A stretch of 64,000 nt of DNA from Perognathus longimembris pacificus (taxonomy: Eukaryota > Chordata > Mammalia > Rodentia > Heteromyidae). Made by a program: the position numbers and the translations under genes. The notes beneath the pieces are model-generated. The model saw nothing but the letters and a program-made list of their open reading frames with translations. It had not been told where the DNA came from and made no database searches. Positions 15,056 through 61,464 of this stretch are shown here, in pieces; within the stretch, counting starts at the first letter, position 1; every line of letters begins with the position of its first letter. The stretch is taken from NCBI RefSeq assembly GCF_023159225.1, contig NC_063176.1:4414963-4478962 (forward strand), written 5' to 3'.

Positions 15056-15182
15056 CACATTAACAACCAAACAACTACATTTTGTTGTGTGAAATGCTTG
15101 TGATTCACATTCTTCCTAATTGCCAGCCCCTTATATGGCTGTAGTTTTCATTTCTTTGGGCCTCATTTAAGAAATCATCACA

Positions 15183-16500: not shown

Positions 16501-16514
16501 TAAAACAATAAGGA

Positions 16515-16737
16515 GGGCTGGGGATATGGCCTAGTGGCAAGAGAGCTTGCCTGGTATACATGAGGCACTGGGTTCGATTCCCCAGCACCACATATACAGA
16601 AAACGGACAGAAGTGGCGCTGTGGCTCTAGTGGCAGAGTGCTAACCTTGAGCAAAAGGAAACCAGGGACAGTGCTCAGGCCCTGAGTTCAAGGCCCAGGA
16701 CTGGCCAAAAAAAAATAATAAAAATAAATAAATAAAT
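16515..16737 (+). mobile_element. Dimeric ID-type SINE with target duplication
   Basis: It starts GGGCTGGGGATATGGCC and ends in A-rich AATAAATAAATA repeats. TAAAACAATAAGGA flanks both sides. It is nested in the 3.1-kb LTR element. Confidence 0.9.
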
Positions 16738-23600: not shown

Positions 23601-24516
23601 TTCCATTCTCTTAATGTGGTTGCTGAGTGCAATGATCTTGCGCCTCAGTACTGCCTTAGCTGTGTCACATAGGTTTCTTTGTGATGTGTTCTCTTTGTCA
23701 TTGTGGCTTATGAATTCGTTGATTTCATCTTTAATTTGGTTTGTGGCCCAAGTGTTGGATAGCAGCATGGCGTTTAGCCTCCAAGAGTGTGTATAGTGTC
23801 TGTGGTTTCCTTTGTTGTTGAGGGTCACCTTTAATCCACTGTGATCAGATATAATACATGGGATGATGTCAATACTTTTGTATTTGCTGAGGTTCTTTGT
23901 GTGGGCTATGACGTGGTTTATTTTTGAATATGATCCATGGGATGCTGAAAAGAAGGTGTATTGGGTCTCTGTAGGGTGGAAAGTTCTATATAGGTCTGTT
24001 AGATCCATTTGGGAAATGGTGTTATTTAGGTCCTCAGCTCCCTTACTAATCCTCTGGGTGTTGGATCTGTCTCTTGGAGAGAGAGGAGTATTAAAGTCAC
24101 CCACTATGATTGTGTTTGTGTCTATCTTGCTCTGTAATTCTGTGAGAATTTGCTTGACATGTCGGGCCTCTTTTGTTCGGTGAGTATACATTTATCACCG
24201 TGATTTCTTGATTCTGGATTTTTCCTTGTATTAATATGTAGTGTCCTTATTTGTCTTTTTGAGTGGACTTTAATGAAAAGTCCAGCTTGTCTGAGATCAG
24301 AATGGGTACACCTGCCGTTTTGGTGGGTGCATTTGCTTGGTAGATCTTGCTCCATCCTTTCATTCGAGGCCTGTTTTTGTCCCTTGCTGTAAGGTGACAG
24401 CAGATGTCAACTTTTTGTTTGCGAATCCATTCTGCCAGTCTGCTCCTCTTTATCGGGGAGTTTAAACCATTTATATTTAAAGAGATCAAGGATAAGGGTG
24501 TTTTTTCTCCTTCCAT
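20681..24516 (-). pseudogene. L1 ORF2 (endonuclease-reverse transcriptase), broken
   Basis: The endonuclease starts MEGEKTPLSLISLNINGLNS at 24516. Where L1 normally has a conserved QETH motif, this copy reads DICCHLTARD, so the catalytic Glu appears removed by a small in-frame deletion. TAA follows near 24236, then a frameshift. The frame resumes at 24191 with GDFNTPLS and ISDHSGLK, shifts again near 23290, and the RT frame 23247-21934 holds [11 protein letters not shown] (FTDD, usually FADD). Multiple stops fill 21934-21433. The C-terminal frame 21433-20681 keeps the [18 protein letters not shown] zinc-knuckle-like motif. Confidence 0.9.
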
Positions 24517-24556
24517 TTTCTTGTTGGGCTGTTTTTTCCTCTTTTTTTTTCTGTCT

Positions 24557-25807: not shown

Positions 25808-26913
25808 CAGTGCCGGGTACGCCTACCAGAGCGGGCGCTGTCGCCGAGGCCCCGCCCTCCTGTGTGCTGTTGTCCACTACAACATGAACTTTAGTGGGAT
25901 ATGCCTCCCAGAGCGAGCCCCGGGTTGTTGGGTTGTGCTTGCGCCCTCCCACGAGTTCCTTGGGGGAGGCGGTATGTGTGGGGCCCAGTGGGATCGACTG
26001 TCTGGGTGTGGCTTGGCACCCTCAGACCTCGCCTCCGCTGCAAGGGGGGGACATGATCAGGCTCAGGTGACCCTGCTGGGCTGGTATTGCCCACCAGCGA
26101 TCTGTGGTTTTAGTTGTAAGAGTCTGCGAGGTCCAGGCGCCTCGGGTGGGGCTTGCCCTGCCGGCCGTCTCCCGGCCCCTGTTGGGAAGGGGGCGGGGCA
26201 GGTTCTGCCAGTTCAGGAACCTGTGTGACCTTGGGGCTGCTCCGCCCTTCCCCTGCTAAACTGCCTTCCCAGCGCCTGATGGGGGCTCCCCGCCTGATTT
26301 GGGGGTTCTTTGTTCCCTCGGGGTGGGGAGGGAGAGGGAGGGGGATCTAGCTTCTTTGTCGGGCTTGGGTCTCTGATAGCTGGTCTCCCGTTGGGGGAGG
26401 GGATAATAACTCACTTTTGCTGATTTGTGTGTGTGTCCCGCGCAGCCATTGGCCCTCCAGGGGTTGGCGAAGTGTAGTGGTGGCTTCCCCATTCCCTCTT
26501 TCTGCCGCGCTGGGTTCCCTTGTCCGAACCCGGTGTGGACCCGAACTTCTCGTCGCTGCCGGTGTGTGTCTTGGTCCGCACCCTGCCTTGTGTCCGTGGG
26601 GTCTCCCGCTATATGAATTCTGCGCTCCTGGCAGCCTGTCTGCCGATCGCCGGGTTCCCCTTTCCCGGCCTGGCCCTGTTTGGGCCAGGATCGGCTGGTG
26701 GGGGGAGGGTGCCCCGGAGATTCTCCGGCTCCGTGTCCGTTTTTGGTTCTTCTTTTTTGCTCCTTTTTGTTTTCCTGCGTTTCTCCACTGCTTCTGGCTG
26801 CTGGTTTTGCTGGGTTCTTGGTGGGGTGTTGGGTATTGGAGTTTCCAGCTTGCTATTTAGTTGGAGCGAGTCGGGGTGCCTCCCTGTTCTGTTGGCGCCA
26901 GCTTTCTCTATCT
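25808..26913 (-). promoter_or_regulatory. L1 5'UTR, GC-rich
   Basis: This GC-rich stretch contrasts with the AT-rich surroundings and precedes ORF1 on the minus strand, where L1 carries its internal promoter. Open frames here on both strands are composition artefacts. Confidence 0.7.
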
Positions 26914-26923
26914 CCACATTTTT

Positions 26924-27742
26924 AATGATATAACTCCTTTACTCTAAACCTTTTTGCTTCCTTAAAGTTATGCTACCTAATAATATTGCCATCAGTTAAC
27001 GGGTGGGCCTCCAAACAGGCCTTCAATGGACCAACAAGATACAGTGTACATCATTCCTACTATACACACAGTTAGCGAAGGAAAACATTTCCCTTAGCAT
27101 TTTGTCAAAAACATGCAACAGTTTCTGAGGCATTTTTCATTGCCTCTTCATATTCAGGTACTTATTGTCACAATGAAATTATAACCCTACCTTTGAATAT
27201 AAAATTTCCAATATATAAAACTAATTATTGTTGTAAAGTCATTATTTATAGTATTGCAAAACTCGAAGTAGATAAAACATTTCCAAATTTTGACCATACA
27301 GGCTACATAAAATATAGATATTATTGTTGTTATTGTTAGTATTAAGTAGTCATAAAAAGTTGGTTGTTTACAGGTCCATAAATCATGTTATGAGCACAAC
27401 ATTTCCTCGTCAGTTTACCCCTTTCATCAGTCTCCTTCATTTCGTCCTTCACATTAGTGACATCAAGTTACTCTATTTTTGTCTTAAAATGTGTCAATTA
27501 TCTAAATAGATTTATTGGAAACACTATGATAAACCATCCTTGCAGTTCTCCAAGTAACAATGCTTTAATTTGTTTCAATAAATTTATGCCCTATGCTGGA
27601 ATAAGTCATTTTAAATCCCAGATGATAGTCTTCTTCTTGCCTGTGAAGATAATTTTAAGGCTAAAAATGATGGTCTTTCCCTCTAAATACAACTATTCTT
27701 TTTCAATCTAGATAATTTTAATGAGGCTAAAACTCTTCATAG
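26924..27742. other. AT-rich intergenic DNA upstream of orphan UGT2B exon
   Basis: No gene seen. No clear match to the intron 4 sequence of the pseudogene at 56007-56766, apart from an acceptor-like TTCATAG next to the orphan exon. Confidence 0.4.
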
Positions 27743-27962
27743 GTCATCCCAAAACAATAACCTTCATCACTCATGGTAGAGCTAATGGTGTCTACGAGGC
27801 CATCCATCACGGGGTTCCCATGGTGGGCATTCCTTTGTTTGGGGAACAACATGATGACATTGCTCACATGGTGGCCAAAGGAGCAGCTGTGCAAGTGGAT
27901 ATAAGAAAGCTATCAAGTAAAGACTTGCTCAGAGCACTTGAGACCGTCATTAACAACCCTCT
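27743..27962 (+). pseudogene. UGT2B: Orphan UGT2B exon 5 (relic gene copy)
   Basis: A 220-bp copy of exon 5, normal size and phase, after acceptor TTCATAG. It encodes [16 protein letters not shown] and continues [20 protein letters not shown]. The UDP-glucuronate signature normally has THGG; here it is THGR. The donor is GTGACT instead of GTGAGT. No exons 1-4 of this copy are found upstream and no exon 6 downstream, although intron 5 blocks near 29.93-30.9 kb are homologous to 58.9-59.9 kb of the pseudogene. The frame itself has no stop. Confidence 0.9.
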
Positions 27963-39935: not shown

Positions 39936-40658
39936 ATGCCTGGGAAAAGGATTTGGGTTCTCCTGCTACTGCAGCTGAATTGTTACTTTAGCTCTGGAAG
40001 CTGTGGGAAAGTACTGGTGTGGCCGATGGAATACAGCCACTGGATAATATGAAGGTAATACTGGATGAACTCATCTTGAGGGGTCATGATATAACAGTTG
40101 TGAGACCATCATCTGCTATTTTTGTTGATAGCAATGAAACATCCAGTATCAAATTTGAAACTTTCCCTTCATCTTCAAATACCGATGAAATGATCACTGT
40201 TTTCAGAGAATTCATAGAACTGTGGATGTATGAATTGCCAAGAACAACATGTTTGGCATATTCACCATTACTGGAGAACTTATTTATGAAATTTTCTGAC
40301 ACTTGGCTCAATATTTGTAGAGAAGCAGCTTTGAATACGGAACTGATGGCAAGGCTATGAAAAGCAAGTTTCGACGTCGTGATTGCAGATGCCAGCGGCC
40401 CTTGTGGGGGGCTTCTGTCTGAGCTCTTGGAGATTCCCTTGGTGTACACTCTCCGCTTCTATCCCGGCTACACAATGGAGAAGTATAGTGGAGGCCTTCT
40501 GGTCCCTCCTTCTTATGTGCCTGTCATTCTGTCAGGATTGGGTGGTCAGATGACCTTCATGGAGAGGGTGGAAAACTTCATATGCATGCTGTATTTTGAC
40601 TTTTGGTTGGAGACATATGACTCAAAGAAATGGAGTAACTTTTACAGTGAAGTTTTAG
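39936..40658 (+). pseudogene. UGT2B: UGT2B pseudogene exon 1
   Basis: It starts [18 protein letters not shown] with signal peptide as in the left gene. It is 723 bp, one base shorter than the left exon, because ATAAATATG has become ATAATATG; the frame hits TGA at 40050-40052. A separate CGA-to-TGA change, by comparison with the left copy, is at 40358-40360. The remainder is well conserved to donor TTTTAG|GTAAGT. Confidence 0.94.
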
Positions 40659-41690
40659 GTAAGTCATAGTTCATTATGAGTAGGAAAGAGTCATAACTTT
40701 TCTGAAAGGTGAGAGAGGTTTTCTAACATGCATGTGAAATAAGATAAATTTGTTTTTCGTATTTGGAACAGTTAAATGAAATGTAAGATTTTATACCAGA
40801 TTGCTGAATATGGAATAGCTTCCTTTATAGGGTCAGAGAGAAGACAATGGATGATTTCTTATATGGGAAACTCTCGGAGTTCATCCAGTTTGAAAAGCTT
40901 CATCAATGGTGAAAGTTGTCCATTTTTCTTTATTATCAAAATCACTAATTACATCCCTAAGACACTGATGGATGGCAATATGTAGACTGAGGAGATTCCT
41001 TTTATACTCTACCTATGGAGGCAGGAAGTACGAACTTGTTGCCCTTGATCAATTTCCTTAATTAAATTAAAATACTTTTATCTGTGTTCTCTTCCTTCCT
41101 TTTTCTTTTTGCTCATCCCAAGGTTTGAACTTAGGGATGTCCAGCTTGTTTAGCTTACTTGCTTAGTGCTGGTACTATACTACTTGAAGCATACTTCTAC
41201 CCAGGTTAGCCTTCAACTTAAGTCCTCCAATTCTCAGAATCTTGAGTCACTAGCATTACACAATGAGCCACTGTTGCCCACTTTTTGGGATTGTCTAAAA
41301 TTTTCTCTTGTTTCTAAGAGATACACTGTTTCATAGCAGATTCAACATAATTTGTTACTTTTTCAATCAAATGTTTCATAGAGGTAAAATCTAGTATACT
41401 GAGAAGATGCACATGATTATTCACTATCTTTACTAACATATTTCTTCATTTAATAAATATTAGCCATGAACACCCCAGTATTTCTGAAATTTTCCCCAGT
41501 GATATAAGCAAATGTGGCTATACAATAAAGAAACACTGTCAAGTACCATTTTTGTTTAATGTAGAAAACTATATTGAGAAGTTCAGAGAAAATAGTTTTT
41601 GTGACTATGATAGAATTATTAATTCTGGAGATGGAATTTTTATTTAATGGATAAAGAGAAAAGAAATTACAGTTAATTATACAATCACTT
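40659..41690. other. Pseudogene intron 1, 5' part
   Basis: No gene. Contains an old reverse B1-like SINE at about 41105-41285; otherwise AT-rich. Confidence 0.45.
41105..41285 (-). mobile_element. Old B1-ID SINE, reverse
   Basis: AAGGTTTGAACTTAGGGATG through CTCAGAATCTTGAGTCACTA resembles the reverse complement of the B1-ID family, diverged. Confidence 0.5.
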
Positions 41691-44467: not shown

Positions 44468-44790
44468 GTACAATGCTAGCTGTAATACAGTTACTATTTT
44501 AATGATTATTCATGACTACTTATATAAGAAGGTACCATGGAAATAGTCTCTTACCAATTTTCCTTTCACACAGAAATATACAAATACCACACATGTACCT
44601 CCATAATTCATTACCCCCCAAAAAAACTATGCACGTAAATTACATCTCGTAGATTTGTTGATTTACCAACAAAAACATTTATTAATCATTAAGCATAAAT
44701 TACAGCAATCCTCTAGGAAAAAATAACTATGATTAGAAAAGACTCTGTTGTGTAATTATGTATTCTTTATCTTTTAAACTCTCCACTCAG
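44468..44790. other. Pseudogene intron 1, 3' part
   Basis: AT-rich, no gene or repeat recognised. Confidence 0.4.
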
Positions 44791-44939
44791 GACACCCCAC
44801 TACCTTATTGGAGACAATGAGTAGAGCAGACATCTGGCTTATTCGATCCTACTGGGACTTGTTATTCCCGTGACCTACTTTACCAAATTTTGACTTTGTT
44901 GGAGGACTCCACTGCAAACCTGCAAAACCCTTGCCTAAG
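44791..44939 (+). pseudogene. UGT2B: UGT2B pseudogene exon 2
   Basis: 149 bp with acceptor ACTCAG and donor AAG|GTAAAT. The frame reads [20 protein letters not shown] then hits TGA at 44871-44873 where the left gene has an Arg codon; the rest, through KPAKPLPK, is conserved. Confidence 0.94.
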
Positions 44940-45349: not shown

Positions 45350-45557
45350 TTTTTTTGCCAGTCCACTATGTAGGTTTTGAACTCAAGGCCTGGCATTATT
45401 TCTGAGTTTCAGTGCTCAAGATTAGTGCTTATCTCTTGAGCCACAGCTCTACTTAGAGCTTTGTGGTGCTTAGTTGGAGATGAAAGTCTCACAGACTTTT
45501 CTACCCAGGCAGGCTTTGAAATGGGATCCTCAGATCTCAATCTCCTCAGTAGCTACC
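45350..45557 (-). mobile_element. B1-ID SINE split by the provirus (first part)
   Basis: Reverse SINE: tRNA-like half (CTCTTGAGCCACAGCTCTAC) followed by B1-like CAGATCTCAATCTCCTCAGT. It stops at the provirus border and resumes at 54096 with ATTATAGGCAAGCACCATCA. Confidence 0.85.
45552..45557. repeat. Target-site duplication of provirus (left)
   Basis: GCTACC, identical to 54090-54095; six bases as produced by class II integrases. Confidence 0.95.
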
Positions 45558-45926
45558 TGTTGAACCTGGGTAACTGCAGTCGAAATCAGGACACGGGGGA
45601 TGCAAGGCGAGTGAACCAATGCATACTTTATTCCAAGAAGGCCAGGGTTTATATAGGGTTAGAAACCAATTTTACAATTACAGGGTAAAAGATCAATACA
45701 GCATGACATTTGTCTCAAATACAAAAGTGGAGGAAATTTCCTACTGTGTGGGCAGGAACTTGGTACAAATGCCTTTCTAATAACAGGAGGTAGTGACTAC
45801 AAAGATTATTGATATCAAAACAAGGAACTGTATACAACCGAGGTAGAACTAATTATCTCCTAGCTACTATCTCCTTAAGGCTAGATAACATCAATCTTGA
45901 CTTCTCCAAATACTTGTGAAATAACA

Positions 45927-46062
45927 GTGAGGAGACTTTCCTGTTTACAGTGAAAATCTAGTGAGGAGACTTTCCTGTTTACAGTGAGAATCTAGTGAGG
46001 AGACTTTCCTGTTTATAGTGAGAATCTAGTGAGGAGACTTTCCTGTTTACAGAGAGAATCTA
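45927..46062. repeat. Four 34-bp direct repeats in LTR U3
   Basis: Four consecutive units starting GTGAGGAGACTTTCCTGTTT. Each contains GAGACTTTCC, close to an NF-kB site. Such repeats act as enhancers in retroviral LTRs; the role here is inferred. The same array is at 53731-53866. Confidence 0.92.
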
Positions 46063-46081
46063 ACACTAAAGGCAGCTGGTC

Positions 46082-46109
46082 TAGCAAGTCTCCTAAGGGA
46101 GACTTGCTA
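46082..46109. repeat. Perfect 12-bp inverted repeat in LTR
   Basis: TAGCAAGTCTCC, a TAAG loop, then GGAGACTTGCTA. A hairpin in U3 next to the direct repeats; also in the other LTR at +7804. Confidence 0.85.
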
Positions 46110-46285
46110 AGTAGGGGGAAAAAGGAGATTCTCACAACAACTGGTGGCTTCCTTTGGCCCACAAACACCAGAAACTCCTTTCTGGGAATGTGTTCCCAAG
46201 GGCCTATTAGTGTGCTAATAAGGCATCAGAGTAACCGTGCCGGGGCTAAATTTTTCCACTGGTTGGAGACTTTAATTCTCCAACA

Positions 46286-46299
46286 ATTCCCCCTTTTTT
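46286..46299 (-). promoter_or_regulatory. Polypurine tract
   Basis: Minus strand AAAAAAGGGGGAAT directly before the 3' LTR; it is the plus-strand primer site for reverse transcription. Confidence 0.88.
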
Positions 46300-46300
46300 A

Positions 46301-48313
46301 TTAATTTTCCACAGCCGCTTCTCTAGAAAGATTAAGGGCAGTGAGTAAAACATCAGAGGAATTCTTCCTAGTGTAACGCTTCATTATAGCTATGATAGAA
46401 CAATATCCTAAGAAAAAGACACATATCATAAGTATTAAGGCAATAAAAGCACTTCCAACACTATGGGTAATACTTTGCCACCACCCCCTAGGGTCTAGTC
46501 CTTCTAAGGTCTGAGCTAGTCCTTGGGCTATGTCATCAATAGAGGAGGCATCTGGCAATTCCTTTTGAAAAGCTTCAAAAACCTCCCTGTACAAGCTTTG
46601 TTCACTTAACGTACCACTTAGTAGGGCTCCATCTATAAGCATTTGTATATCATTCCATTCATATTCAGAGGCATTATATTTATAAGGTGTTACACAGACA
46701 TGACTAGAATTCCAATCACAAGTCAAAAACAATCGTTGCTGCAAAGCCAGGTATTTCTGTCCAAGCCAAAACACTCCTCCTTTAACAGCTTCTAACTCAT
46801 CTTGAAGGTGGGCATTTACTTCCAGCTGGTGTTGCCACAGATTGTGGGAGTCCTGGTGCCACTGCACCATAAAGTCATGAGTTTGTACAGATTGTCGCAA
46901 TGCAGCTCCGGATACTGCTGCAGTTGTAGCAATGGCAATCAGTCCAACAAGTCCTGCAATAATCAGTCCAATGGCACGACGACTCCTCTTCAGAAGCCGC
47001 TTAAAAAACTGCATTACCAATCCTTGTACAGGTCCTCCAGCCCAGGGACGATGCATGCGAACAGGAACCCAAAGGGAGTTGCGCTGGGTTAGAATCATGA
47101 TCCTATCTTGACTAAAATTAAAGGTGACATTGTTATTCAAGCAAGTATACAACTTACAATTTATGCAGGTAATGGCATTCTTAGTTATGTTTATGGGGCC
47201 GACCATCAGTACATGTGGAAAATGAACACAAGCAGAGATATTATAGGTCTTTACAACTGTGAAGTTGTAGGAGGCCGAGGATCCTTTAGTTCCTGAGTAA
47301 GTTCCATTGGCCAGCAATACAGGAGCCAGAGAAGCTGCTAATTTCCAGAGATGACGTTGTGGAGGAAATAGCCTGTCTCCATGGGCGAGAGCAGGCCGGG
47401 GGTCACCAAAGCCTGCTCCAAACCACCCTAAAAGCTGTTTAGCAGACATGGCATTGGACATATTCATAGTTAAAGTAGGGTCACAAGATGAGTTATATTC
47501 AGTGCAGTTTTGCAACCACACACCAAAAGGTCCCCAATCATACCAAGTATGTCGGGATGTATTCCAAATAGTTGGAAAAATTCCTCGACAATTTTCCCAA
47601 CGTCTTTCAGTAAAGTTCAGGTTCAGGTAAGTAAAATTGTCACATTTAGGCAGGCCAGTAGGGCTAGGATAATTATCTAATTTATAGGTATGAGATCCCA
47701 CAGACCAGGAAGACAGTCTAATCAGCCGAGTTCTACTGGAGTTATATGAACCTCCATGCTGAATCCAATATTGATATCTAAAAGGGTAACATGGGGAGCG
47801 GCCTAGGCAGATAGCCTTAGAGAAGTGAGAGTAAGAAAAGTTAAAAGACCGTCCTTCTTCCATAGGAAAAACTGGAGTACCGGACCCGTAAGGGGGAGAG
47901 AGTAAATCGGGAATAGATGTAGAAACAGAGATGGGGGCTTCTGTCCATAGATATGGACGTAATAAGGGAGGGTTAGGAATATAGGCCCAATACATTACCT
48001 CTGAGGTGGCCCCTGCCGTAGTAGAGTTGCAGGTTATCAGAGCACACATAGCCAGGAATAGGTGTTCAGAAGTCAACGCTTTTCCGGTGGATGCTACTAC
48101 CTTCTGGGCTTTATCAGCCAGAGCTTTTACCTGTCCCCAGGAGGGTAAAGGGGCTGTACTTGCTCTTCGAGGCTTTTTACGGAGACTGAGGGCAGCCATG
48201 GCTTGGATTGGGATCATCTCGTCGCTTGGATGAGGACGTCTTGTCCTGATCTTGATGTTCTGTGGGCACTCTTTGCCGGACCCATCGGAGTGGGTGCCAG
48301 AAGGATTGGCCAT
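46301..48313 (-). CDS. env: Provirus env glycoprotein precursor
   Basis: An uninterrupted 670-residue frame overlapping the end of pol by 137 bp. In order: a long N-terminal leader with basic patch RKKPRR (residues 45-50), a hydrophobic signal segment about 84-100, a Cys- and sequon-rich surface subunit, a furin-type site RSRR at 443-446, a fusion-peptide-like hydrophobic stretch from 447, a heptad region, a Cys pair in the TM ectodomain (near LTCDWNSSHVC), a membrane span about 621-644 and a short tail. Many Asn-X-Ser/Thr sequons are present. The arrangement is betaretroviral. No break is seen. Confidence 0.93.
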   Translation of the reverse strand: MANPSGTHSDGSGKECPQNIKIRTRRPHPSDEMIPIQAMAALSLRKKPRRASTAPLPSWGQVKALADKAQKVVASTGKALTSEHLFLAMCALITCNSTTAGATSEVMYWAYIPNPPLLRPYLWTEAPISVSTSIPDLLSPPYGSGTPVFPMEEGRSFNFSYSHFSKAICLGRSPCYPFRYQYWIQHGGSYNSSRTRLIRLSSWSVGSHTYKLDNYPSPTGLPKCDNFTYLNLNFTERRWENCRGIFPTIWNTSRHTWYDWGPFGVWLQNCTEYNSSCDPTLTMNMSNAMSAKQLLGWFGAGFGDPRPALAHGDRLFPPQRHLWKLAASLAPVLLANGTYSGTKGSSASYNFTVVKTYNISACVHFPHVLMVGPINITKNAITCINCKLYTCLNNNVTFNFSQDRIMILTQRNSLWVPVRMHRPWAGGPVQGLVMQFFKRLLKRSRRAIGLIIAGLVGLIAIATTAAVSGAALRQSVQTHDFMVQWHQDSHNLWQHQLEVNAHLQDELEAVKGGVFWLGQKYLALQQRLFLTCDWNSSHVCVTPYKYNASEYEWNDIQMLIDGALLSGTLSEQSLYREVFEAFQKELPDASSIDDIAQGLAQTLEGLDPRGWWQSITHSVGSAFIALILMICVFFLGYCSIIAIMKRYTRKNSSDVLLTALNLSREAAVEN

Positions 48314-50804
48314 CTCCTATAGAAACATAAGCATAGCCTCGCCCCTGGGTTAACAACTCCCCGGGGACCCAATCTAGCCCAACCCCCAATCTAATCCAAA
48401 CCGGCTGCGGTTTGTTTTGCATAGGCGGAGCTAGGAAGTGTCGCTCAGCTCTTGCTAAAACATCTCCTTGAGGCAAATTTAAAAAGTTAAGGACAAATAA
48501 TGCTTCTGCAATAACAGCTCGGGCTGTTTTGTAAATACTTTTCATAGAAGTTGCATATCCCTCAGTACTATCCATACTCCCCCTCTTTAGTTTTTTAATT
48601 TGCGTTTTTAATGTATAATGAGCTCTTTCTACTATACCTTGACCTTGAGGATTGTATTCAATTCCTGTAACATGAAGAATGTTATGAAATTCTAAAAATT
48701 TTCGTACTTGTTTACTGGAATAAGCTGGTGCATTGTCAGTTTTTATTTGAGAAGGAATCCCCATGACTGCGAATGTTTCTAGTAAATGTTGAATGACATG
48801 AGTCCCTTTTTCCCCTGGTAGAGGAGTTGCCCAAATAAAAGAAGAATATGTATCAATGGATACATGCACATATTGTAAGCGGCCAAATTCAGGGATGTGT
48901 GTTACATCCATTTGCCAAATTTCGTTGGGAGCTAATCCTCGAGGATTCGCACCGTGGGGAAGAGTTCGCAGATGCAAGGGTCTGCAAGTAGGACAGTTAG
49001 CAATGATTTGTTTAGCTTGTTTAAAGGGAATTTTATAAGTAACATGTAAATGACCTGCATTAGAGTGCCGGGCAGCATGATCTTCTTCTGCTGAGGCAAA
49101 AGAGACTAAAGCATCTACTTTAGCATTACCGTATGCCATAGGACCTGGCAAATTAGAATGAGCTTGAATATGGACTACATACAAAGAGTGTTGCCTCTGG
49201 CGCAACAGGTTCTGTAATTGTTTAAATAGTGAACTTAGTGGGGGTTTTATTTGAGAAATAACAGCAGAGTATATATTGCATAAAACATGTGCTGCATAAG
49301 CAGAGTCAGTAATTAAATTAAAAGGTATCAAGAAATTTTCCAGAGCATATATAATAGCCTGTAACTCATTTTGTTGTGCTGATTGCCAAGGGGTAAAGAA
49401 AACTTGATATTTATCTTCTGTCCAGAAAGCACATTTGTTATTTTTAGTACCATCTACAAAAACATTGGGAGCATTTAGAATGGGCTCAGAGAGTAAAATA
49501 TTATCAATAACATAAGTTTGTCTTTGAAAAAATTGCCAAAGAGGACTAGAAGGTAAATGGTATAAAATTTCCCCTGTAAAGCCATTTAAAGCCAGAGGGA
49601 GAAGATCAGAGGTTTGTAACATAAACTCAAACTGCTGTTTAGGTATAGGGGTGATAATGAAGTAGGCGTCTTGCCCACTGATTTGCAGGCATCTCTTACG
49701 GCCTTGCATGATAATGAAACTGATCATCTCTGGGTAGGTGGTTAACGTTTTGGAGAAGGTGTGTTTGGTATATATCCATTCCAAAGGCTTATTGTACTGA
49801 GCTAGCACCCCTGTAGGGTAGTCTTTGGTAAGTAAAATTAGCAACCCAATAGGGGCAGATAAGTCTACCCAAGCTAAGGAATTTTGAGCCAGGGCCTTTT
49901 CCACTAGGAGTAGCTCCTGACGTGCCTCATCAGTTAATTCTCGGGGGCTTTTTAAGTCCGAATCTCCTTGAAGGATGGAAAATAGATTATGCAGCGCATA
50001 TGTGGGAATTCCTAAGGAAGGGCGAAGCCAATTGATGTCCCCTAATAACTTTTGAAAGTCATTGAGAGTTTTTAACTCTTCAGTACGGATTTTTATTAAT
50101 TGAGGGGTAATTGCTTGTCTCCTAACTAAATACCCTAGATACTTAAATGGCTCTTCTGTCTGGATCTTATCAGGGGCAACTATCAAACCATACTGTTGCA
50201 GATGCAAAGGCAAAATTTTCAATAACTCCGATAGAACATCTTTATTAGGTGCAGCAAACAGCAAATCATCCATGTAGTGAATACATAAAACTTGAGGAAA
50301 TCTTTTTCTAATAGGTTCTAATGCTCTGGCTACAAAAGTCTGACACATAGTAGGTGAATTCATCATGCCTTGGGGCAAAACTTTCCATTGAAACCGTCGA
50401 TGGGGTCCTTGGAGGTTTATTCGAGGCAAAGAAAAAGCAAAACGTGAGCGGTCTTCAGGGTGTAAAGGAACAGTAAAGAAACAATCTTGCAAATCTATTA
50501 CTATAATATGCCAATTTTCAGGAATCATGGATGGCTGGGGCATGCCAGGTTGTAAAGCACCCATAGGTATCATAGCTGCATTTACAGCTCGTAAATCAGT
50601 GAGTAGTCTCCATTTGCCAGATTTCTTTTTAATAACAAAAATAGGAGAGTTCCAGGGAGAGGTAGATACCTCAATATGATTTTTAGCTAACTGATCTTTA
50701 ACAAGCTGTTCCGCAGCCGCCAATTTCTCTTTAGACAAAGGCCATTGCTCAATCCAGACTGGACGATCTGACCGCCAGGAAATCTTAATGGGAGAGACAT
50801 CCAT
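48177..50804 (-). CDS. pol: Provirus pol: reverse transcriptase, RNase H, integrase
   Basis: An open frame of 875 residues from the first Met. RT has YMDD at residues 177-180 (plus 50265-50276) and the thumb motif LLGDINWLRP. RNase H has VFVDGTKN, QQNELQAI and LITDSAYAA. Integrase has a zinc-binding His/Cys set (HSNAGHLH and CPTC) and the D,D-35-E core visible at WQMDVTH, KTDNAPAY and QGIVERAH. All catalytic residues are in place. The frame opens a few codons before 50804, after a TAG, and lies +1 (or -2) relative to pro rather than the -1 expected. The end overlaps env. Confidence 0.94.
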   Translation of the reverse strand: MDVSPIKISWRSDRPVWIEQWPLSKEKLAAAEQLVKDQLAKNHIEVSTSPWNSPIFVIKKKSGKWRLLTDLRAVNAAMIPMGALQPGMPQPSMIPENWHIIVIDLQDCFFTVPLHPEDRSRFAFSLPRINLQGPHRRFQWKVLPQGMMNSPTMCQTFVARALEPIRKRFPQVLCIHYMDDLLFAAPNKDVLSELLKILPLHLQQYGLIVAPDKIQTEEPFKYLGYLVRRQAITPQLIKIRTEELKTLNDFQKLLGDINWLRPSLGIPTYALHNLFSILQGDSDLKSPRELTDEARQELLLVEKALAQNSLAWVDLSAPIGLLILLTKDYPTGVLAQYNKPLEWIYTKHTFSKTLTTYPEMISFIIMQGRKRCLQISGQDAYFIITPIPKQQFEFMLQTSDLLPLALNGFTGEILYHLPSSPLWQFFQRQTYVIDNILLSEPILNAPNVFVDGTKNNKCAFWTEDKYQVFFTPWQSAQQNELQAIIYALENFLIPFNLITDSAYAAHVLCNIYSAVISQIKPPLSSLFKQLQNLLRQRQHSLYVVHIQAHSNLPGPMAYGNAKVDALVSFASAEEDHAARHSNAGHLHVTYKIPFKQAKQIIANCPTCRPLHLRTLPHGANPRGLAPNEIWQMDVTHIPEFGRLQYVHVSIDTYSSFIWATPLPGEKGTHVIQHLLETFAVMGIPSQIKTDNAPAYSSKQVRKFLEFHNILHVTGIEYNPQGQGIVERAHYTLKTQIKKLKRGSMDSTEGYATSMKSIYKTARAVIAEALFVLNFLNLPQGDVLARAERHFLAPPMQNKPQPVWIRLGVGLDWVPGELLTQGRGYAYVSIGDGQSFWHPLRWVRQRVPTEHQDQDKTSSSKRRDDPNPSHGCPQSP

Positions 50805-50811
50805 CTGGACA

Positions 50812-51474
50812 TCAAGGGAAAACTAAATGAGCTCCCCATTGTTCTAAGACATCTCGCCCAATGATGTTAATAGGTACTTCTAAAACATATGGCTTCACAA
50901 TGGCATGCTGGCCTTCACCATCAGCAATATCCTGATATTCAACACTCTGTTTGATAACTGAAACTGGTGTACTACTGACACCTTTTATATCACACTGGAT
51001 TGTTTGAGTAACCCAGTCTCGGGGCCACTCAGTCTGTCTGATTATAGTTATGTCTGAGCCAGTATCCAACAGTCCTTTAAATTGCTTGTCTCCTATGTAA
51101 AATTTACGACAAGGTTGCTTCTTTGCTATATTTAAGGTCCAGAAAACATAATGGGGGTCCGTACTGCCAAATCCTCCTTTACGGGGGTTTGCAGAAGATG
51201 ATATAGATATGTAAGGAAGCAAAATTAATTGTGCAATACGATCCCCAGCATTAATCTCATAAGGTACAGGGGAGGTCATAAGGACTAGAATCTCTCCCAT
51301 GTAGTCGGAGTCAATTACTCCTGGTATAACTAACACCCCTTTTGCATTTAAACTAGAACGCCCCATAAGGAGGCCCCAGGTCCCCGATGGCAAGGGACCG
51401 TATATGCCAGTTTTAACTCTGATGGGAGCGGAGTTAGCAGGGAGAGTTAAGGTCTGGCTTGAGGGAAGGTCCAC
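50812..51474 (-). CDS. pro: Provirus pro: dUTPase plus aspartic protease
   Basis: Frame of 220 residues, open further upstream and reached by -1 slippage at 51567-51573. The N-terminal part carries dUTPase motifs: VDLPSS, GLLMGRSS (33-41), GVIDSDYMGEI (52-62), GDRIAQLILLP and KGGFGST. The C-terminal part is the protease, with LLDTGSD (catalytic Asp137) and IIGRDVLEQWG. The frame stops right after this, with no glycine-rich G-patch tail as many betaretroviral proteases have. Confidence 0.93.
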   Translation of the reverse strand: MDLPSSQTLTLPANSAPIRVKTGIYGPLPSGTWGLLMGRSSLNAKGVLVIPGVIDSDYMGEILVLMTSPVPYEINAGDRIAQLILLPYISISSSANPRKGGFGSTDPHYVFWTLNIAKKQPCRKFYIGDKQFKGLLDTGSDITIIRQTEWPRDWVTQTIQCDIKGVSSTPVSVIKQSVEYQDIADGEGQHAIVKPYVLEVPINIIGRDVLEQWGAHLVFP

Positions 51475-53093
51475 TGCAGCGCTCCCGCTAGTGGCTGGTT
51501 GTAGTGAAAAGACGGTGGGAAAGCCTCGTTTGTTGGAGCGGGGCCACGAGGCTGGCCCCTTGCCCCGTTTCCCGAACGCTTAGCACTTCCTCCCTGCACT
51601 ACTCCCGATGGAAAGGAAAGTATGTTCCCTTCAATGTCAGTTTTAGACCGACATTCCCGGGCCCAATGCGCCCCGCGTCTGCAGCAAGGGCATTTCCCCG
51701 GCGGCTTTGTATTAGCCGATTTTCTCTTAACACAATTTCTTTTAGTATGTCCCTTGTCTCCACAGCCAAAACATCTAAGTTCCCCAGAGTCGGGCAATTT
51801 TAGATTGGCGGCCAAAGTCTGTCCCAGCAGCCTCATCTTTTGAGAGTCCGAATATACATTCCGACAAGCCTTGGCATATACTAGTATATCCCCAGTCTCT
51901 TTAACAGGCAAAATAGCACGCTGACAATCCTCATTAGCATTCTCAAATGCTAGTAATTTAATTAATTGATCACGAACAGCCGCATCTTGTACTGTCCTAT
52001 CGATGTTCTTTTGAAGGCGCGCTATGAAGTCTAAGTAGGGTTCCTGGGCTCCTTGAATAATACGTGCCCAGGAACCTTCTTTTTCGCCTTCGGGACGTAC
52101 TCGACCCCATGCCTCTAGGCATATTTCCTGCAGCTGCTCGTGAATCTCTCTAGGGATATTTACTTGGTCCTGAGCGCGCTTATAATCCCCAGTGCCTGTT
52201 AGCATAGCATGTGTAATCCTGCGGAGGGCAGGATTACGGGACTGAGCATTTTGGGCTGCCTTAGTGGCGGCACCATCACTGTACCACATTAACCATTGTA
52301 GATATTCCTGAGGCTTTAATAGCGCTCTACAAATAACTTTCCAATCCTCAGGAGCCAAGTTTCCATAGGCAGAGACAATTGATGACATTAGTTCTTTAAC
52401 ATATGGCGCCTGCGGTCCATATAAGGTTACCGCCTTCCGTAGCTGAGTTAGGTGGGCCATATCTATACTCTCATAACGAGGGGGCTGTGCTACCCCATCC
52501 ACCGGAGGGGGTCTAATGACGGGGAAGGCTCTGTAGCTCCGAAGAGGAACAAAGCCCTCAGAGTCAGAATCAGAAGAGGGAAATAGAGGCAGTTTTGGCA
52601 ACTGTGGTCTTTTCTTTTTAAGCCTCATTTTCGTAGCAGGTCGCGGTGGATTGCTAGAGCATCTGTAGCTCTCAGACTGCCCTGCTGAGCTATATGAATT
52701 GGCCTCATTCTCTGAAGAGGTATGAGTAGCAGCCACAGATTTAGCTTTAGGTGCTACCTTTTCTCTGTCAACACTAGCAGGAGACTGCTCAGATGTAGCC
52801 ATCTCTTTTAACTCCTGCCCGATTTGAGTTTTTACCTCTTCGGGCAAATTATAAGTCTCCATGGCTTTCTCCACGTCAGCCTCCAGTTCGGCCGCTGTTG
52901 TTCTGACGGCATTCCGACACATCATACTTAGAGCTGCACGTGTTAATGCCCAAATAGACCAAAAGGTAACTGGAACTTTCTCACCATGCCTATATGCCTT
53001 TTCCACATTATTCTTTACACGTTCCCAGACTTCTAGATCTAAAGTACCTTCCTCCGGGAACCATGGGTTAAACTCCACCACCACTTGTACCAT
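51447..53093 (-). CDS. gag: Provirus gag polyprotein (main frame)
   Basis: Frame of 548 residues. It includes the matrix-like NPWFPEEGTL segment, a PPRY late-domain motif (204-207), the capsid with a major homology region QGAQEPYLDFIARL (347-360), and two nucleocapsid knuckles, CFGCGDKGHTKRNC (441-454) and CPCCRRGAHWAREC (468-481). The first Met here is probably not the natural start: a separate frame beginning MGQAKS at 53185, with a myristoylation-type Gly2, runs into this region but is displaced relative to it near the TGGTGGTGG run at about 53078-53087. The C-terminus overlaps pro. Confidence 0.92.
   Translation of the reverse strand: MVQVVVEFNPWFPEEGTLDLEVWERVKNNVEKAYRHGEKVPVTFWSIWALTRAALSMMCRNAVRTTAAELEADVEKAMETYNLPEEVKTQIGQELKEMATSEQSPASVDREKVAPKAKSVAATHTSSENEANSYSSAGQSESYRCSSNPPRPATKMRLKKKRPQLPKLPLFPSSDSDSEGFVPLRSYRAFPVIRPPPVDGVAQPPRYESIDMAHLTQLRKAVTLYGPQAPYVKELMSSIVSAYGNLAPEDWKVICRALLKPQEYLQWLMWYSDGAATKAAQNAQSRNPALRRITHAMLTGTGDYKRAQDQVNIPREIHEQLQEICLEAWGRVRPEGEKEGSWARIIQGAQEPYLDFIARLQKNIDRTVQDAAVRDQLIKLLAFENANEDCQRAILPVKETGDILVYAKACRNVYSDSQKMRLLGQTLAANLKLPDSGELRCFGCGDKGHTKRNCVKRKSANTKPPGKCPCCRRGAHWARECRSKTDIEGNILSFPSGVVQGGSAKRSGNGARGQPRGPAPTNEAFPPSFHYNQPLAGALQWTFPQARP
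51567..51573 (-). promoter_or_regulatory. Gag-pro -1 frameshift slippery site
   Basis: GGGAAAC on the minus strand, placed as G GGA AAC in the gag frame, the canonical betaretroviral heptamer. The -1 frame is open from here through pro. Confidence 0.9.
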
Positions 53094-53185
53094 TCGTCTA
53101 TCTGTGAGCGGGAGACTATAGCTCCATTCCGCTTCAGTACGTGGTGGATAAGGTTAGAAAATGGAGTTGATTTAGCTTGTCCCAT
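53094..53185 (-). pseudogene. Out-of-frame gag N-terminus
   Basis: A frame from the ATG at 53185 begins MGQAKSTPFSNLIHHVLKRN and continues to DEWYKWW; it is typical of the start of a myristoylated matrix protein. It differs from the main gag frame by an indel (net one lost or two gained bases), so the two are not contiguous in this copy. Confidence 0.75.
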
Positions 53186-53341
53186 AACCCCGTAATATTA
53201 AAAATAGGAGCTCACCACACAGATCCCTTGTCTCCTGTGAACTATACACACAGATCCCTTGTCTCCTGTGAATTAAAAATATCTCTCACCTCACTCGAGA
53301 GCTCGGCAGTTCCGCAATCTCCTGTGGATCAATTGTCAGGT

Positions 53342-53359
53342 CCCTGGGTCCGGACGCCA
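53342..53359 (-). promoter_or_regulatory. Provirus primer-binding site
   Basis: Minus strand TGGCGTCCGGACCCAGGG, two bases after the 5' LTR. The TGG start is as expected for a tRNA 3' CCA complement; I cannot name the tRNA. Confidence 0.7.
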
Positions 53360-53361
53360 GA

Positions 53362-54089
53362 TGTTGAACCTGGGTAACTGCAGTCGAAATCAGGACACGG
53401 GGGATGCAAGGCGAGTGAACCAATGCATACTTTATTCCAAGAGGGCCAGGGTTTATATAGGGTTAGAAACCAATTTTACAATTACAGGGTAAAAGATCAA
53501 TACAGCATGACATTTGTCTCAAATACAAAAGTGGAGGAAATTTCCTACTGTGTGGGCAGGAACTTGGTACAAATGCCTTTCTAATAACAGGAGGTAGTGA
53601 CTACAAAGATTATTGATATCAAAACAAGGAACTGTATACAACCGAGGTAGAACTAATTATCTCCTAGCTACTATCTCCTTAAGGCTAGATAACATCAATC
53701 TTGACTTCTCCAAATACTTGTGAAATAACAGTGAGGAGACTTTCCTGTTTACAGTGAAAATCTAGTGAGGAGACTTTCCTGTTTACAGTGAGAATCTAGT
53801 GAGGAGACTTTCCTGTTTATAGTGAGAATCTAGTGAGGAGACTTTCCTGTTTACAGAGAGAATCTAACACTAAAGGCAGCTGGTCTAGCAAGTCTCCTAA
53901 GGGAGACTTGCTAAGTAGGGGGAAAAAGGAGATTCTCACAACAACTGGTGGCTTCCTTTGGCCCACAAACACCAGAAACTCCTTTCTGGGAATGTGTTCC
54001 CAAGGGCCTATTAGTGTGCTAATAAGGCATCAGAGTAACCGTGCCGGGGCTAAATTTTTCCACTGGTTGGAGACTTTAATTCTCCAACA
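53362..54089 (-). repeat. Provirus 5' LTR
   Basis: 728 bp, identical to 45558-46285 except one base. Contains promoter (TATATAAACCC), AATAAA, four 34-bp repeats (53731-53866) and the 12-bp hairpin. Confidence 0.97.
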
Positions 54090-54095
54090 GCTACC
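54090..54095. repeat. Target-site duplication of provirus (right)
   Basis: GCTACC, identical to 45552-45557. Confidence 0.95.
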
Positions 54096-54120: not shown

Positions 54121-54227
54121 TTGCTACTTCGATATAACCAAACTTTCAGTCATGTTTGCTTGACTGTTATTTGTATGTGCTGTTGTCTGTGTGCATGTGA
54201 GAGATGACGTACACTTTTTCTTCACAG

Positions 54228-54359
54228 GAAATGGAAGATTTTGTGCAAAGCTCTGGGGACAATGGTGTGGTGGTGTTTTCTTTGGGGTCCATGGTTGGTA
54301 ACCTAACAGAAGATACAGACAATGCAATTGCATCAGCACTGGCACAAATTCCACAGAAG
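54228..54359 (+). pseudogene. UGT2B: UGT2B pseudogene exon 3
   Basis: 132 bp, acceptor TTCACAG, donor AAG|GTGAGA; encodes [20 protein letters not shown] onward. Open, but belongs to a disabled gene. Confidence 0.94.
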
Positions 54360-55918
54360 GTGAGATGTAGTACCTCAGTACTCGTCTTCATTGTATGGGA
54401 CATAAACTCTGTACATATCTGCCTGTACTAGTTTCCAGTGACAATAACTCCAATCTATCTTAAGAAACTAAAATTAAAAATATGCATAGAAGATGCTGAA
54501 ATAGCATGGAATTTTCGATTTTTTTAATTTACAGTGAATGAAACATGAATTTTTTCAACAGCAAGAAACACGGAAGTCACAAGGTGAAATGTTATTATCA
54601 TAATATTGCTAGCAAGACTTCACAGAAAGCATCAAATTTCATCCAGTGATCACAATTCTAATCCTGTCAATACACTAGACAAGCTTCAGAAGGGAGGTAA
54701 ACTACACTTAATAATTGGAGTCCTAGAATAGCATTTGACATGCAGTTTAGTGTAGATTGATATATTATATAGTTTAGTGTTCCTAAGTAATCCTTTCCTC
54801 CAATTGTGAAATGGATCCATGAGGAGGTTATTCAGAGAAAGCAAAGGGGAGGTTTTTCTCTACTACCATGTATTCATTCAGCTTTGTTCATTAAGAGAAA
54901 AAAATAAAACCAACCTTTCCTACTGGACTGGCCCTTATTCATATGTGAAACCAGATCTCTACAGTTCTTGTGAATGTGTGCATAGTCGCCTGAAAAATAA
55001 AGGTAGCATCATTACAATTTAGTTTCATTTCAGCAACCCTATGACTTATGAATAACAAGCCAGATCTATTTTCTACTTGCAGTGATTTTTCCCAGAGTAG
55101 TGATAATCAATAAGTTTAGATGTCACTATCATGAATTTATGTTCAAAATTTCCTAGACTTCACAACTAACAATTCGTAATCTAAACCTAGTTTCATGAAA
55201 TTACTAAAACGAATTCATTTATCACAAAAAGTTGTTTACATAGATTTGATCAGGTTTGTCAAAAAATAGTTACAAAAATAACATTTGCTTGTGTGCTGGT
55301 CATGAGGAAGAAGCCTTAACATGCAGCACAACAGTGTGTATTGTTGATGTGAGTGTTACTAGTAGGCCTTGGCAACCACCACAGGATTGGTTCTAAGTCC
55401 ATTTGTCTGTCTGTCCAACCCTTCTCTCCAGGGGCAACTGTGACTATAAACTATTTGTCATGAATAGGCAGTAAAAACCAAACAAAACATTTTAAACTAA
55501 AATAACACTCTTTGGAATAAGAGAATATTACCCGAATGTCACTTTGTAAAGACTAATAGCTGAAATTGGAAGATATTAGAACTAGTTTAGTAAATATTTT
55601 TGTGTAAAGAGGTAAATCTTAGTAATTTGATACTTATCTTGCAACAGATCTATAATTTTGACCATGTAAAAATACCTTGAATACATTTATTTGTCATGTA
55701 TTACATTAATGTGTCTAAGTACAGTAAAGTTATGATTGCATTCAATGTTATTGATTAGAAAATTGAGAATGAGAAGAGTTAAAATCCCTTGGCTCTCAAT
55801 CTTGTAATTGTCCTCGATATGACCCATCTTGTTGTCTTTTCCTTTATCCATTCTATGAAAATGATTTAATTAAAATCTGACATGTTAAACTTAAAATTAC
55901 AATATCTTTACCTAACAG
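54360..55918 (+). other. Pseudogene intron 3
   Basis: Homologous in blocks to intron 3 of the left gene (213-2827). No repeat insertion recognised. Short frames here are intronic. Confidence 0.65.
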
Positions 55919-56006
55919 ATTCTTTGGAGATTTAATGGGAAGAAACCAGACAGCTTAGGAAAGAATACTCGGCTGTACAAGTGGCTCCCCCAGAATGACC
56001 TCCTTG
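55919..56006 (+). pseudogene. UGT2B: UGT2B pseudogene exon 4
   Basis: 88 bp, acceptor CCTAACAG, donor CTTG|GTAAGA; encodes [20 protein letters not shown] and KWLPQNDLL. Open. Confidence 0.94.
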
Positions 56007-56766
56007 GTAAGACAATGAAAAATCAAATACCAAAAGCATGAGTAGCTGTAGAAGTAGTTGATGACAATACAACAGGAAACACATGGAGATTTGCTAGCAA
56101 AAACTCAAAAATGAAACCAAAATTTTATGTTTATGAACCCATTCTATGGAAAATAAGCTTTAACAGTTTGTGTTGAGTATATTATTTTTCAAAGTATATT
56201 TAACATTGACAAAGAATTTTGTATAATTATCTGAGGTCATCTATCTGTCCCTAATTTCAATCATTACATTAGCAGTTCTCCTAATGTAGGGTGAGGATTT
56301 GCAATGCCACTGAAACAAATACCTTTGTCTTATTATGAATAAGTCTGAATAAAAAGTCTTGTTTCTTAAGAGGAAGTGATAATACACTGTTTCCAGCATC
56401 CCACTTTCATTTGGCTAATGCTCTACTTTTAAGTTTATGAGAGCATAATCTGATGTGAACTTTTCTTTTGATTCAGAAATTGCTCTCTAATTTACATTGG
56501 GTGCTTTTGCTATCTAGTCAACTGAACGTTATACATTCAATTTCAAATCTCAATTTGCAAAAACCTAAGGCACATACCCTAAGAATTTTACTAATATCTC
56601 AAGTCAATTAAGTGCTACGTGAGGTGAGATAAGAAAGCCATGTAAATGTAATTTCATAGGTTCAATAATTGTTATTTAGAAAAGTTTGTTCTTTTCACTG
56701 CCTCATATTACACATTGTCACTAAGAAGTTTAATGAACCATTTTACTGAAATTCACCAATTTGTAG
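56007..56766 (+). other. Pseudogene intron 4
   Basis: AT-rich, nothing else recognised. Confidence 0.5.
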
Positions 56767-56986
56767 GTCATCCCAAAACGAAGGCCTTCATCACTCACGG
56801 TGGAGCTAATGGCATCTACGAGGCCATCCATCACGGGGTTCCCATGGTGGGCATTCCTTTGTTTGGGGAACAACATGATAACATTGCTCACATGGTGGCC
56901 AAAGGAGCAGCTGTGCAACTGGATATAAGAACACTATCAAGTAAAGACTTGCTCAGAGCACTGGAAACCGTCATTAACAACCCTCT
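56767..56986 (+). pseudogene. UGT2B: UGT2B pseudogene exon 5
   Basis: 220 bp, acceptor TTGTAG, donor GTGAGT. Encodes [20 protein letters not shown] and [20 protein letters not shown], the UDP-glucuronate signature with THGG intact. Open. Confidence 0.95.
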
Positions 56987-59906: not shown

Positions 59907-60185
59907 TATAAAAAGAATGCTATGTGTTTATCAACCATTCACCATGATCAGCCTATAAAGCCTCTGGACCGAGCTGTGTTCTGGATCGAATTTGTCATGC
60001 GCCACAAAGGAGCCAAGCACCTGAGGCCACTTGCCCACAACCTCACCTAGTACCAGTACCACTCTCTGGATGTCATTGGCTTCCTGCTGGCCTGTGTGGC
60101 CACCGTTCTGTTCCTTGTCATAAAATGTTGCTTGCTTGCTTACCAAATGTTTTTTAAGATGGGAAAGAAGAAAAAGAGGGAATAG
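59907..60185 (+). pseudogene. UGT2B: UGT2B pseudogene exon 6
   Basis: Encodes the C-terminal part: [20 protein letters not shown], then TAG at 60048 where the family has Trp, then the membrane anchor [18 protein letters not shown] and a Lys-rich cytosolic tail (dilysine-type ER retention region) ending with TAG at 60183. The sequence just upstream (GCCTTTATCTATAAA) lacks an acceptor AG. Confidence 0.92.
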
Positions 60186-60961: not shown

Positions 60962-61464
60962 TGTTGGACCCTGGTAACTGCAGCCGTAGTCAGGACACCG
61001 GGAATGCACAGGCGAGTGGACCAATGCACACTTTATTTTAGGAGGGCCTATTCTTATATACTGTTTTAGGAATAGGGTAAAGTTCAAACAGAGAGATATA
61101 CATCATAAGATAAGACTCATCTAAACATGGTTACAATCGCCAATACATCATAGGATTAGACTGGTCAAGGCAAGGCTGCATTTATCTCCTAACTGCTTGT
61201 TTATGCTGCATTAACTATCTTAACCATAAAACTCCCCCCACACAGAAAAACCCCCTCCCCATGTAACTGTGTACATGAATCTTGCAAGGACCTCTCATAT
61301 CAGGGGAGGAATGTCTCATGATCAATTGGTTTCCTTTAGCCATCAAACACAGAAAATTCCTTAATGGAGGTGTGCCCCCATTGGCCTCTTAGATTGCTAA
61401 TAAGGCTTTAGAAAGTCAATGCTGAAGCTGAGTCCACCACAGGTCAGAAAATCATTCTCCCACA
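60962..61464 (-). mobile_element. Solo LTR related to the young provirus
   Basis: Starts TGTTGGACCCTGGTAACTGC and ends TTCTCCCACA; CAGCAT flanks it at 60956-60961 and 61465-61470. AATAAA on the minus strand. Homologous to the 728-bp LTR at both ends but only 503 bp and lacking the 34-bp repeat array. Confidence 0.92.

What the first reader, a model, noticed from the sequence alone, without database searches (positions are those of the whole stretch)
45558..54089. Very young class II provirus with four long coding frames in a UGT2B pseudogene intron
The two 728-bp LTRs differ at a single base (45639 A, 53443 G) in my end-to-end comparison, about 0.14 percent. Flanking GCTACC is perfect, and the SINE it interrupted joins cleanly across the site. 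Pro, pol and env have all visible catalytic or processing motifs. Such low LTR divergence implies integration well under a million years ago at ordinary rodent rates, so it may be polymorphic in the species and its family may have been recently active.
Basis: partly seen in the sequence, partly recalled or inferred. Interest (0 to 1): 0.9.

Follow-up and report, generated by a model that had tools for sequence, protein, structure and literature searches.

The report
Young rodent retrovirus, unusual pol layout
A retrovirus inserted itself recently into this rodent's genome; it belongs to the branch of a retrovirus found in the brains of sick cattle, and its whole family carries its polymerase gene in an unexpected reading frame that natural selection has nevertheless kept working.

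Summary
In detail: minus-strand provirus 45558-54089, two 728-bp LTRs with one difference, GCTACC repeats, four long frames, intron 2 of a UGT2B pseudogene.

Beyond it: (1) Pol and Gag trees place it in a clade with bovine retrovirus CH15, an apparently exogenous cattle betaretrovirus. (2) The host genome holds many sisters; four other LTR pairs differ at 0 of 694 positions, so the family was recently active. (3) Pol is +1, not -1, to pro. This is not damage: 36 of 37 copies read (own copy included) keep the spacing, and pol is under purifying selection against four older copies (dN/dS 0.11-0.19, dS 0.12-0.41). Pol is therefore probably made by another route than -1 slippage; candidates are its own AUG after a spliced or restarted start, or a +1 slip at the pro stop. 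(4) The primer-binding site is not tRNA-Lys3 but identical in 8 of 8 copies read.

This copy's own defect is gag: its MGQ start lies out of frame, as in 6 of 8 copies read. Polymorphism is untested. LTR age about 0.1-0.3 My (upper limits 0.6-1.7).

The parts
45558..46285 (-). 3' LTR of the provirus (728 bp, TGTTG...CAACA)
   Evidence: ungapped comparison, one difference
53362..54089 (-). 5' LTR of the provirus (728 bp)
45552..45557 (.). target-site duplication GCTACC, left
54090..54095 (.). target-site duplication GCTACC, right
45926..46062 (-). U3 array of four 34-bp units; the other LTR carries the same array
53342..53359 (-). primer-binding site, not an exact tRNA-Lys3 match; same 18 letters in 8 of 8 copies read
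53289..53290 (-). best-scoring splice-donor-like site, leader (GAG|GTGAGA), 1st of 330 GT sites
   Evidence: approximate recalled weights
53039..53185 (-). matrix start MGQ..., 48 codons to a stop, in another frame than the rest of gag
51447..53153 (-). gag frame, 568 aa stop to stop, first ATG 53093; rest of MA, CA, two CCHC zinc fingers
51567..51573 (-). GGGAAAC heptamer in phase for gag to pro -1 frameshifting; present in 4 of 4 older copies checked
50812..51579 (-). pro frame, 255 aa: dUTPase and aspartic protease; no G-patch
50802..50825 (-). pro/pol junction: pol-frame TAG, then CCT-TGA (pro stop), 7 bases, pol ATG directly after CAG; splice-acceptor-like (9th of 466 AG sites)
48177..50822 (-). 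pol frame, 881 aa (ATG 50804): RT, RNase H, integrase; +1 relative to pro; under purifying selection in the family
46301..48316 (-). env frame, 671 aa (ATG 48313): HERV-K/HML-type SU and TM; acceptor-like site just before the ATG (2nd of 466)
46287..46299 (-). polypurine tract AAAAAAGGGGGAA
   Evidence: same core as CH15 (paper)
60962..61464 (-). older related solo LTR, 503 bp, ATGCTG repeats, 364 of 444 aligned columns identical (82.0%)

Best explanation
This is a young copy of a recently active, env-bearing endogenous betaretrovirus family of the bovine retrovirus CH15 lineage. Shown: ordinary retroviral integration into a SINE in an intron of a UGT2B pseudogene, antisense to it; a gag-pro junction with an in-phase -1 slippery heptamer; a pol frame that is +1 to pro, a layout kept across the family, old copies included, while pol, pro and env stayed under purifying selection. 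Inferred: because selection kept pol working with this layout, Pol reaches the ribosome without a -1 pro-pol slip. The pol AUG lies 7 bases after the pro stop and directly after a CAG that scores as a splice acceptor, so my first choice is translation from its own AUG on a spliced RNA; a +1 slip at CCU-stop and restart after the pro stop are close rivals. This particular copy is probably defective in Gag, because its myristoylation-type start is out of frame.
For: LTRs 727 of 728, TSD, empty-site paralogue. Trees: Pol 30 rows, clade with CH15 100/100; Gag 14 rows, 9-row clade 100/100. Frame offsets. Of 40 scored junction matches (321 candidates) I read 37, the window's own included: no net length change over 50850-50780 in 36; in the other (L059) the lost base lies after the pol ATG; pol-frame TAG 37, pol ATG 37, pro stop 37 (36 TGA, 1 TAA). 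The copy at C27, with 35 mismatches in 351 columns, has both frames open there. dN/dS window against four older copies: pol 0.11, 0.15, 0.11, 0.19; env 0.23, 0.37, 0.17, 0.23; pro 0.20, 0.53, 0.18, 0.28. Young pairs with identical LTRs. Best leader donor 1st of 330, env acceptor 2nd and pol acceptor 9th of 466.
Against: No transcript, protein or read was seen. Splice weights were approximate and recalled; eight AG sites score higher than the pol one. Many junction copies lie on small unplaced contigs and may repeat one insertion; the clearly independent older copies are four (C27, C1, C22, C19). A young copy (C8) gives pol dN/dS 0.46 on only 5 synonymous and 8 other changes. RNA downstream of the pro stop is not unusually stable (z -0.57; 53 of 200 shuffles as stable), which does not help a structured frameshift. 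The Pol tree lacks JSRV and MMTV; CH15's authors name JSRV as its nearest relative. CH15's own pro/pol relation and Env were not seen.
Confidence: 0.68

Rival explanations
1. Pol is made as Gag-Pro-Pol by a +1 slip at CCU-stop, as at antizyme-type sites (recalled), not from its own AUG.
For: CCT before a stop in 36 of 37 copies; pol frame opens just before the stop after a conserved TAG. Copy C27 differs between stop and AUG only at pol third positions.
Against: One old copy (C19) has CGT there; no unusual RNA structure downstream; a conserved AUG would not be needed.
Confidence: 0.3
2. Termination at the pro stop and restart at the pol AUG 7 bases on.
For: Stop and AUG kept in 37 of 37 copies, spacing included.
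Against: An AUG overlapping UGA lies nearer, in a third frame, though older copies C27 and C1 lack it.
Confidence: 0.17
3. The +1 layout is a defect and the family moves only with proteins made by other elements.
For: Many copies also have gag frame breaks (6 of 8 5' ends read).
Against: pol, pro and env dN/dS well below 1 in most comparisons; older independent copies share the layout.
Confidence: 0.12
4. Older provirus with LTRs made alike by gene conversion.
For: An older related solo LTR lies nearby; sequence-alike sisters exist that could convert it.
Against: Long open frames, perfect TSD, clean SINE join.
Confidence: 0.06
5. The gag frame break is a base-calling error and this copy is fully coding in Gag.
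For: 2 of 8 5' ends read have the start in frame.
Against: No homopolymer of 4 or more in 53040-53110; breaks are common in sisters.
Confidence: 0.15

Closest known systems
Bovine retrovirus CH15 (BoRV CH15), unclassified betaretrovirus
   Same: Same clade in Pol and Gag trees; gene order, polypurine core, pol/env overlap; listed Pol starts with M just before the same conserved stretch.
   Different: RT-RNase H 55%, Gag 42% identical. CH15 has an exact tRNA-Lys3 site and LTRs of 348-607 nt (paper); argued to be exogenous in cattle. Its pro/pol relation was not seen.
HERV-K (HML-2)
   Same: Best solved-structure matches for Env (9nnd) and RT (7sr6, listed only as 'Polymerase'; that it is HERV-K is recalled); neighbouring Pol branch.
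   Different: 49% in RT-RNase H; outside the 100/100 clade; -1 pro/pol relation (recalled).
Automatically named 'ERV group K' proteins of marmots and pinnipeds
   Same: Same Gag clade (Marmota flaviventris, Neomonachus, Zalophus, Halichoerus); 3 of 4 Env hits are Mirounga, Marmota monax, Halichoerus.
   Different: Env 39-43% identical; their DNA was not seen.
Foamy viruses (recalled), for mechanism only
   Same: Pol from its own AUG on a spliced RNA, if the first-choice route is right.
   Different: Not relatives; the route is unproven here.

Membership tests
Betaretrovirus-like (class II) ERV | dUTPase and protease in a separate pro frame | tested here: met
Betaretrovirus-like (class II) ERV | Pol phylogeny within betaretroviruses | tested here: met
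   (JSRV, MMTV not in the tree)
Betaretrovirus-like (class II) ERV | gag-pro -1 frameshift site | tested here: met
   GGGAAAC in phase; 4 of 4 older copies
Betaretrovirus-like (class II) ERV | pro-pol -1 frameshift (usual, recalled) | tested here: not met
   +1 here and in the family. Kept in the group by phylogeny and domains, as a variant.
BoRV CH15 clade | Pol groups with CH15 to the exclusion of HERV-K, SRV, IAP | tested here: met
   100/100
BoRV CH15 clade | Gag groups with CH15 | tested here: met
   9 rows 100/100; the window outside the other 8 (98/97), midpoint rooting
BoRV CH15 clade | tRNA-Lys3 primer site | tested here: not met
   two mismatches and a two-base gap to Lys3, identical in 8 of 8 copies read; a CH15 trait, not known to define the clade
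BoRV CH15 clade | Env related to CH15 Env | not tested
   CH15 Env not among the hits
Fully coding provirus | continuous gag from its myristoylation-type start | tested here: not met
Insertionally polymorphic ERV | empty allele in other individuals | not testable with these tools
   one assembly held; no individuals

The most novel reading that the evidence does not exclude
In this lineage, perhaps in the whole CH15 clade, Pol is translated from its own AUG on a spliced RNA, as in foamy viruses, and not as a frameshifted Gag-Pro-Pol. How Pol is packaged would then need another explanation than fusion to Gag. Odds were raised from 0.08 in my returned draft because the host-genome search then showed the layout to be family-wide and pol to be under selection.
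Probability: 0.3. Interest if true: 0.8.

Novelty: new variant of a known kind. Interest (0 to 1): 0.6.

Why it matters
Betaretroviruses are taken to make Pol by two -1 slips (recalled); a recently active family that keeps pol, pro and env under selection with a +1 pro/pol relation does not fit that and is easy to test with RNA data. It also gives the cattle-brain virus CH15, whose discoverers could not fully exclude an endogenous origin (PMC8686636, passages read), a young multi-copy rodent relative, with marmot and pinniped relatives, for dating and tracing its spread.

Tried and rejected
Rejected on new evidence: my draft view that the pro/pol offset and the primer site were damage of this copy; both are family traits. 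Viral-contig scans with Pol, a Pol alignment, Gag and Env alignments: 0 confirmed loci. tRNA and Rfam scans of the window: 0. A tRNA-like pattern ending in the primer-site complement: 0 exact matches in the host genome, so the primer tRNA is unknown; recalled tRNAs match at most 11 of 18 ungapped. Squirrel as host dropped: 0 matches of the motif. The composite SINE is recalled as pocket-mouse/kangaroo-rat type; its recalled name gave 0 papers; one Env hit is a Perognathus gene model, 73% over 13% of Env. Host remains a lead. A forkhead-motif shuffle test used threshold 4 with 3 observed and is not used. A simple splice-motif scan gave no convincing Rec-like exon. No long LTR frame (longest stop-free stretch 95 codons, antisense), so no MMTV-like sag seen.

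Papers: PMC8686636 abstract, section 7 and passages; all others in search listings only. Searches that showed no endogenous CH15 relative: (open-licence papers; two searches were swamped by unrelated matches).
Full report
Observation. The provirus runs from 45558 to 54089 on the minus strand. LTRs of 728 bp differ at one position, no gap; GCTACC flanks them. Gag, pro, pol and env frames of 568, 255, 881 and 671 aa are open, with betaretroviral domains and motifs DTGS, YMDD, HHCC, DDE and RSRR. Residues D457, E486, D506 and D570, which I take for the RNase H site, are invariant with three relatives.

Setting. A recalled UGT2B probe finds plus-strand exons at 39957-40663, 44790-44939, 54225-54362, 55916-56008, 56712-56984 and 59907-60143, with stops in the first, second and last and a frame change in the first. 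The provirus is in intron 2, ending 135 bp before exon 3, antisense. A second copy lies on the minus strand; its intron at 3347-3041 aligns across the empty-site join (71%, 315 columns). This is a paralogue, not an empty allele.

Age and activity. One difference gives 0.11-0.31 My at 6.0e-9 to 2.2e-9 per site per year, upper limits 0.64-1.74 My (rates assumed). In the host genome the LTR search scored 40 of 1808 candidates, so counts are lower bounds. LTR pairs: 0 of 694 at C4302, C5486, C28 and C2; 1 of 728 here; 1 of 691 plus 2 gaps at C18; 11 of 728 at C8; 4, 4 and 6 of 727 (one gap each) at C4828, C1275 and C6169, which share one target repeat and may be one insertion. C6055 pairings give 17 of 729 twice and C789 0 and 3 of 728; C789 looks like a tandem repeat of a solo LTR and C6055 is rearranged, so I do not date these. 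Solo LTRs at 98-99% with matching 6-bp repeats also occur (L003, L006, L009). An older solo LTR, 82.0% identical, lies in this window. So the family has been active for long and until recently.

Kinship. Pol: 456 database proteins passed, 120 listed; the top three (56, 56, 54%) are two unnamed metagenomic Pols and CH15. A tree of 28 of those 120, the window and a HERV-K chain puts the window with these three at 100/100. Gag: 13 of 15 hits (P0134, P0139 left out) plus the window: CH15, Marmota, three pinnipeds, three unnamed rows and the window form a clade of 9 at 100/100; the window is outside the other eight, 98/97, with midpoint rooting. Env: 4 hits, from elephant seal, woodchuck, grey seal and a Perognathus gene model. 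CH15's authors place it nearest JSRV among the viruses that they compared; JSRV and MMTV are missing from my tree.

The pro/pol junction. Gag to pro is -1 with GGGAAAC in phase; pro to pol is +1, with pol in the frame of gag. Pro ends just after the protease; no G-patch is found and there is no room for one. My returned draft called this probable damage. The host genome says otherwise. Of 40 scored junction matches I read 37, the window's own among them (three partial ones, on C4169, C1965 and C1943, not read): 36 keep the 70-bp spacing, and the exception changes after the pol ATG; the pol-frame TAG, the pro stop and the pol ATG are present in 37 of 37. Several copies have gaps elsewhere in the stretch (L053, L058, L062, L063, L066). 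Four older copies on separate contigs (C27, C19, C1, C22) differ from the window at pol dS 0.37, 0.12, 0.41, 0.37 with dN/dS 0.11, 0.15, 0.11, 0.19; among all ten pairs of the five fetched copies the ratio is 0.11-0.35; the young C8 copy gives 0.46 on 13 changes. These four copies carry decay of their own (1-6 stops, 1-17 frameshifting gaps in pol), which can only raise the ratio. Pro (0.18-0.53) and env (0.17-0.37) are also below 1. A pol gene that was not translated would not keep this pattern. Hence, I infer, Pol is expressed with this layout.

How. The pol AUG is 7 bases after the pro stop, directly after CAG, with CTCAT and TTTTCCCTT upstream. With approximate recalled weights this acceptor ranks 9th of 466, the env acceptor 2nd, and the leader donor 1st of 330. 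CH15 and two relatives have Pols listed as starting with M at the matching place, but gene callers force a start. A +1 slip at CCU-stop and restart are the close rivals; a structured stimulator is not evident (z -0.57).

Primer site. The 18 letters differ from Lys3 but are identical in 8 of 8 leaders read, from at least five target sites; three further 5' ends (L019-L021) aligned too briefly and were not read. The primer tRNA was not found.

Gag. Relatives P0126, P0127, P0128 and P0130 start MGQ (of seven printed). Here the MGQ start at 53185 is in another frame than the rest. Of 8 leaders read, 2 have it continuous into the PWFP stretch; 6, this copy included, do not. So this copy probably makes no normal Gag, and such breaks are common in the family.

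LTR. U3 holds four 34-bp units with GAGACTTTCC; three have TGTTTAC, like NF-kB and forkhead sites (recalled, untested); the older solo LTR has neither.

Verdict. The finding is real. The provirus is a young copy of a CH15-lineage family; the surprise is the selected +1 pro/pol layout.

Noticed in passing
60962-61464 (-): Older related solo LTR with perfect ATGCTG repeats, 82% identical, lacking the U3 motifs.
   Followed up: yes
45926-46062 and 53730-53866: Four-unit 34-bp U3 array with NF-kB-like and forkhead-like motifs (names recalled); some family LTRs are 694 bp long, the length expected with one unit fewer (not aligned).
   Followed up: partly
53342-53359: Family-wide primer site matching no recalled tRNA exactly; primer unknown.
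   Followed up: partly
host genome C28, C2, C4828, C1275, C6169: LTR pairs only about 6.6 kb apart (7.8 kb here), suggesting a shorter, perhaps non-autonomous subfamily, also young.
   Followed up: partly
host genome C24:5641297-5643233: Two partial LTR matches (548 of 728) in opposite orientation about 0.8 kb apart.
   Followed up: no
123-6261 (-): Second UGT2B-like copy, inverted; its four exons in the window show no stop in the aligned parts.
   Followed up: partly
27739-27960 (+): Isolated UGT2B exon-5-like fragment.
   Followed up: no
20681-25822 (-): Long minus-strand frames in shifting phases, perhaps a decayed LINE-1 (guess).
   Followed up: no
4569-4795, 7420-7646, 15168-15394, 16499-16725: Composite SINE, copies 86-95% like the reference, recalled as geomyoid type.
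   Followed up: partly
P0004 (protein, not in window): A Perognathus olfactory-receptor gene model contains an env fragment 73% identical to this provirus, probably a mis-annotation over an older ERV.
   Followed up: partly
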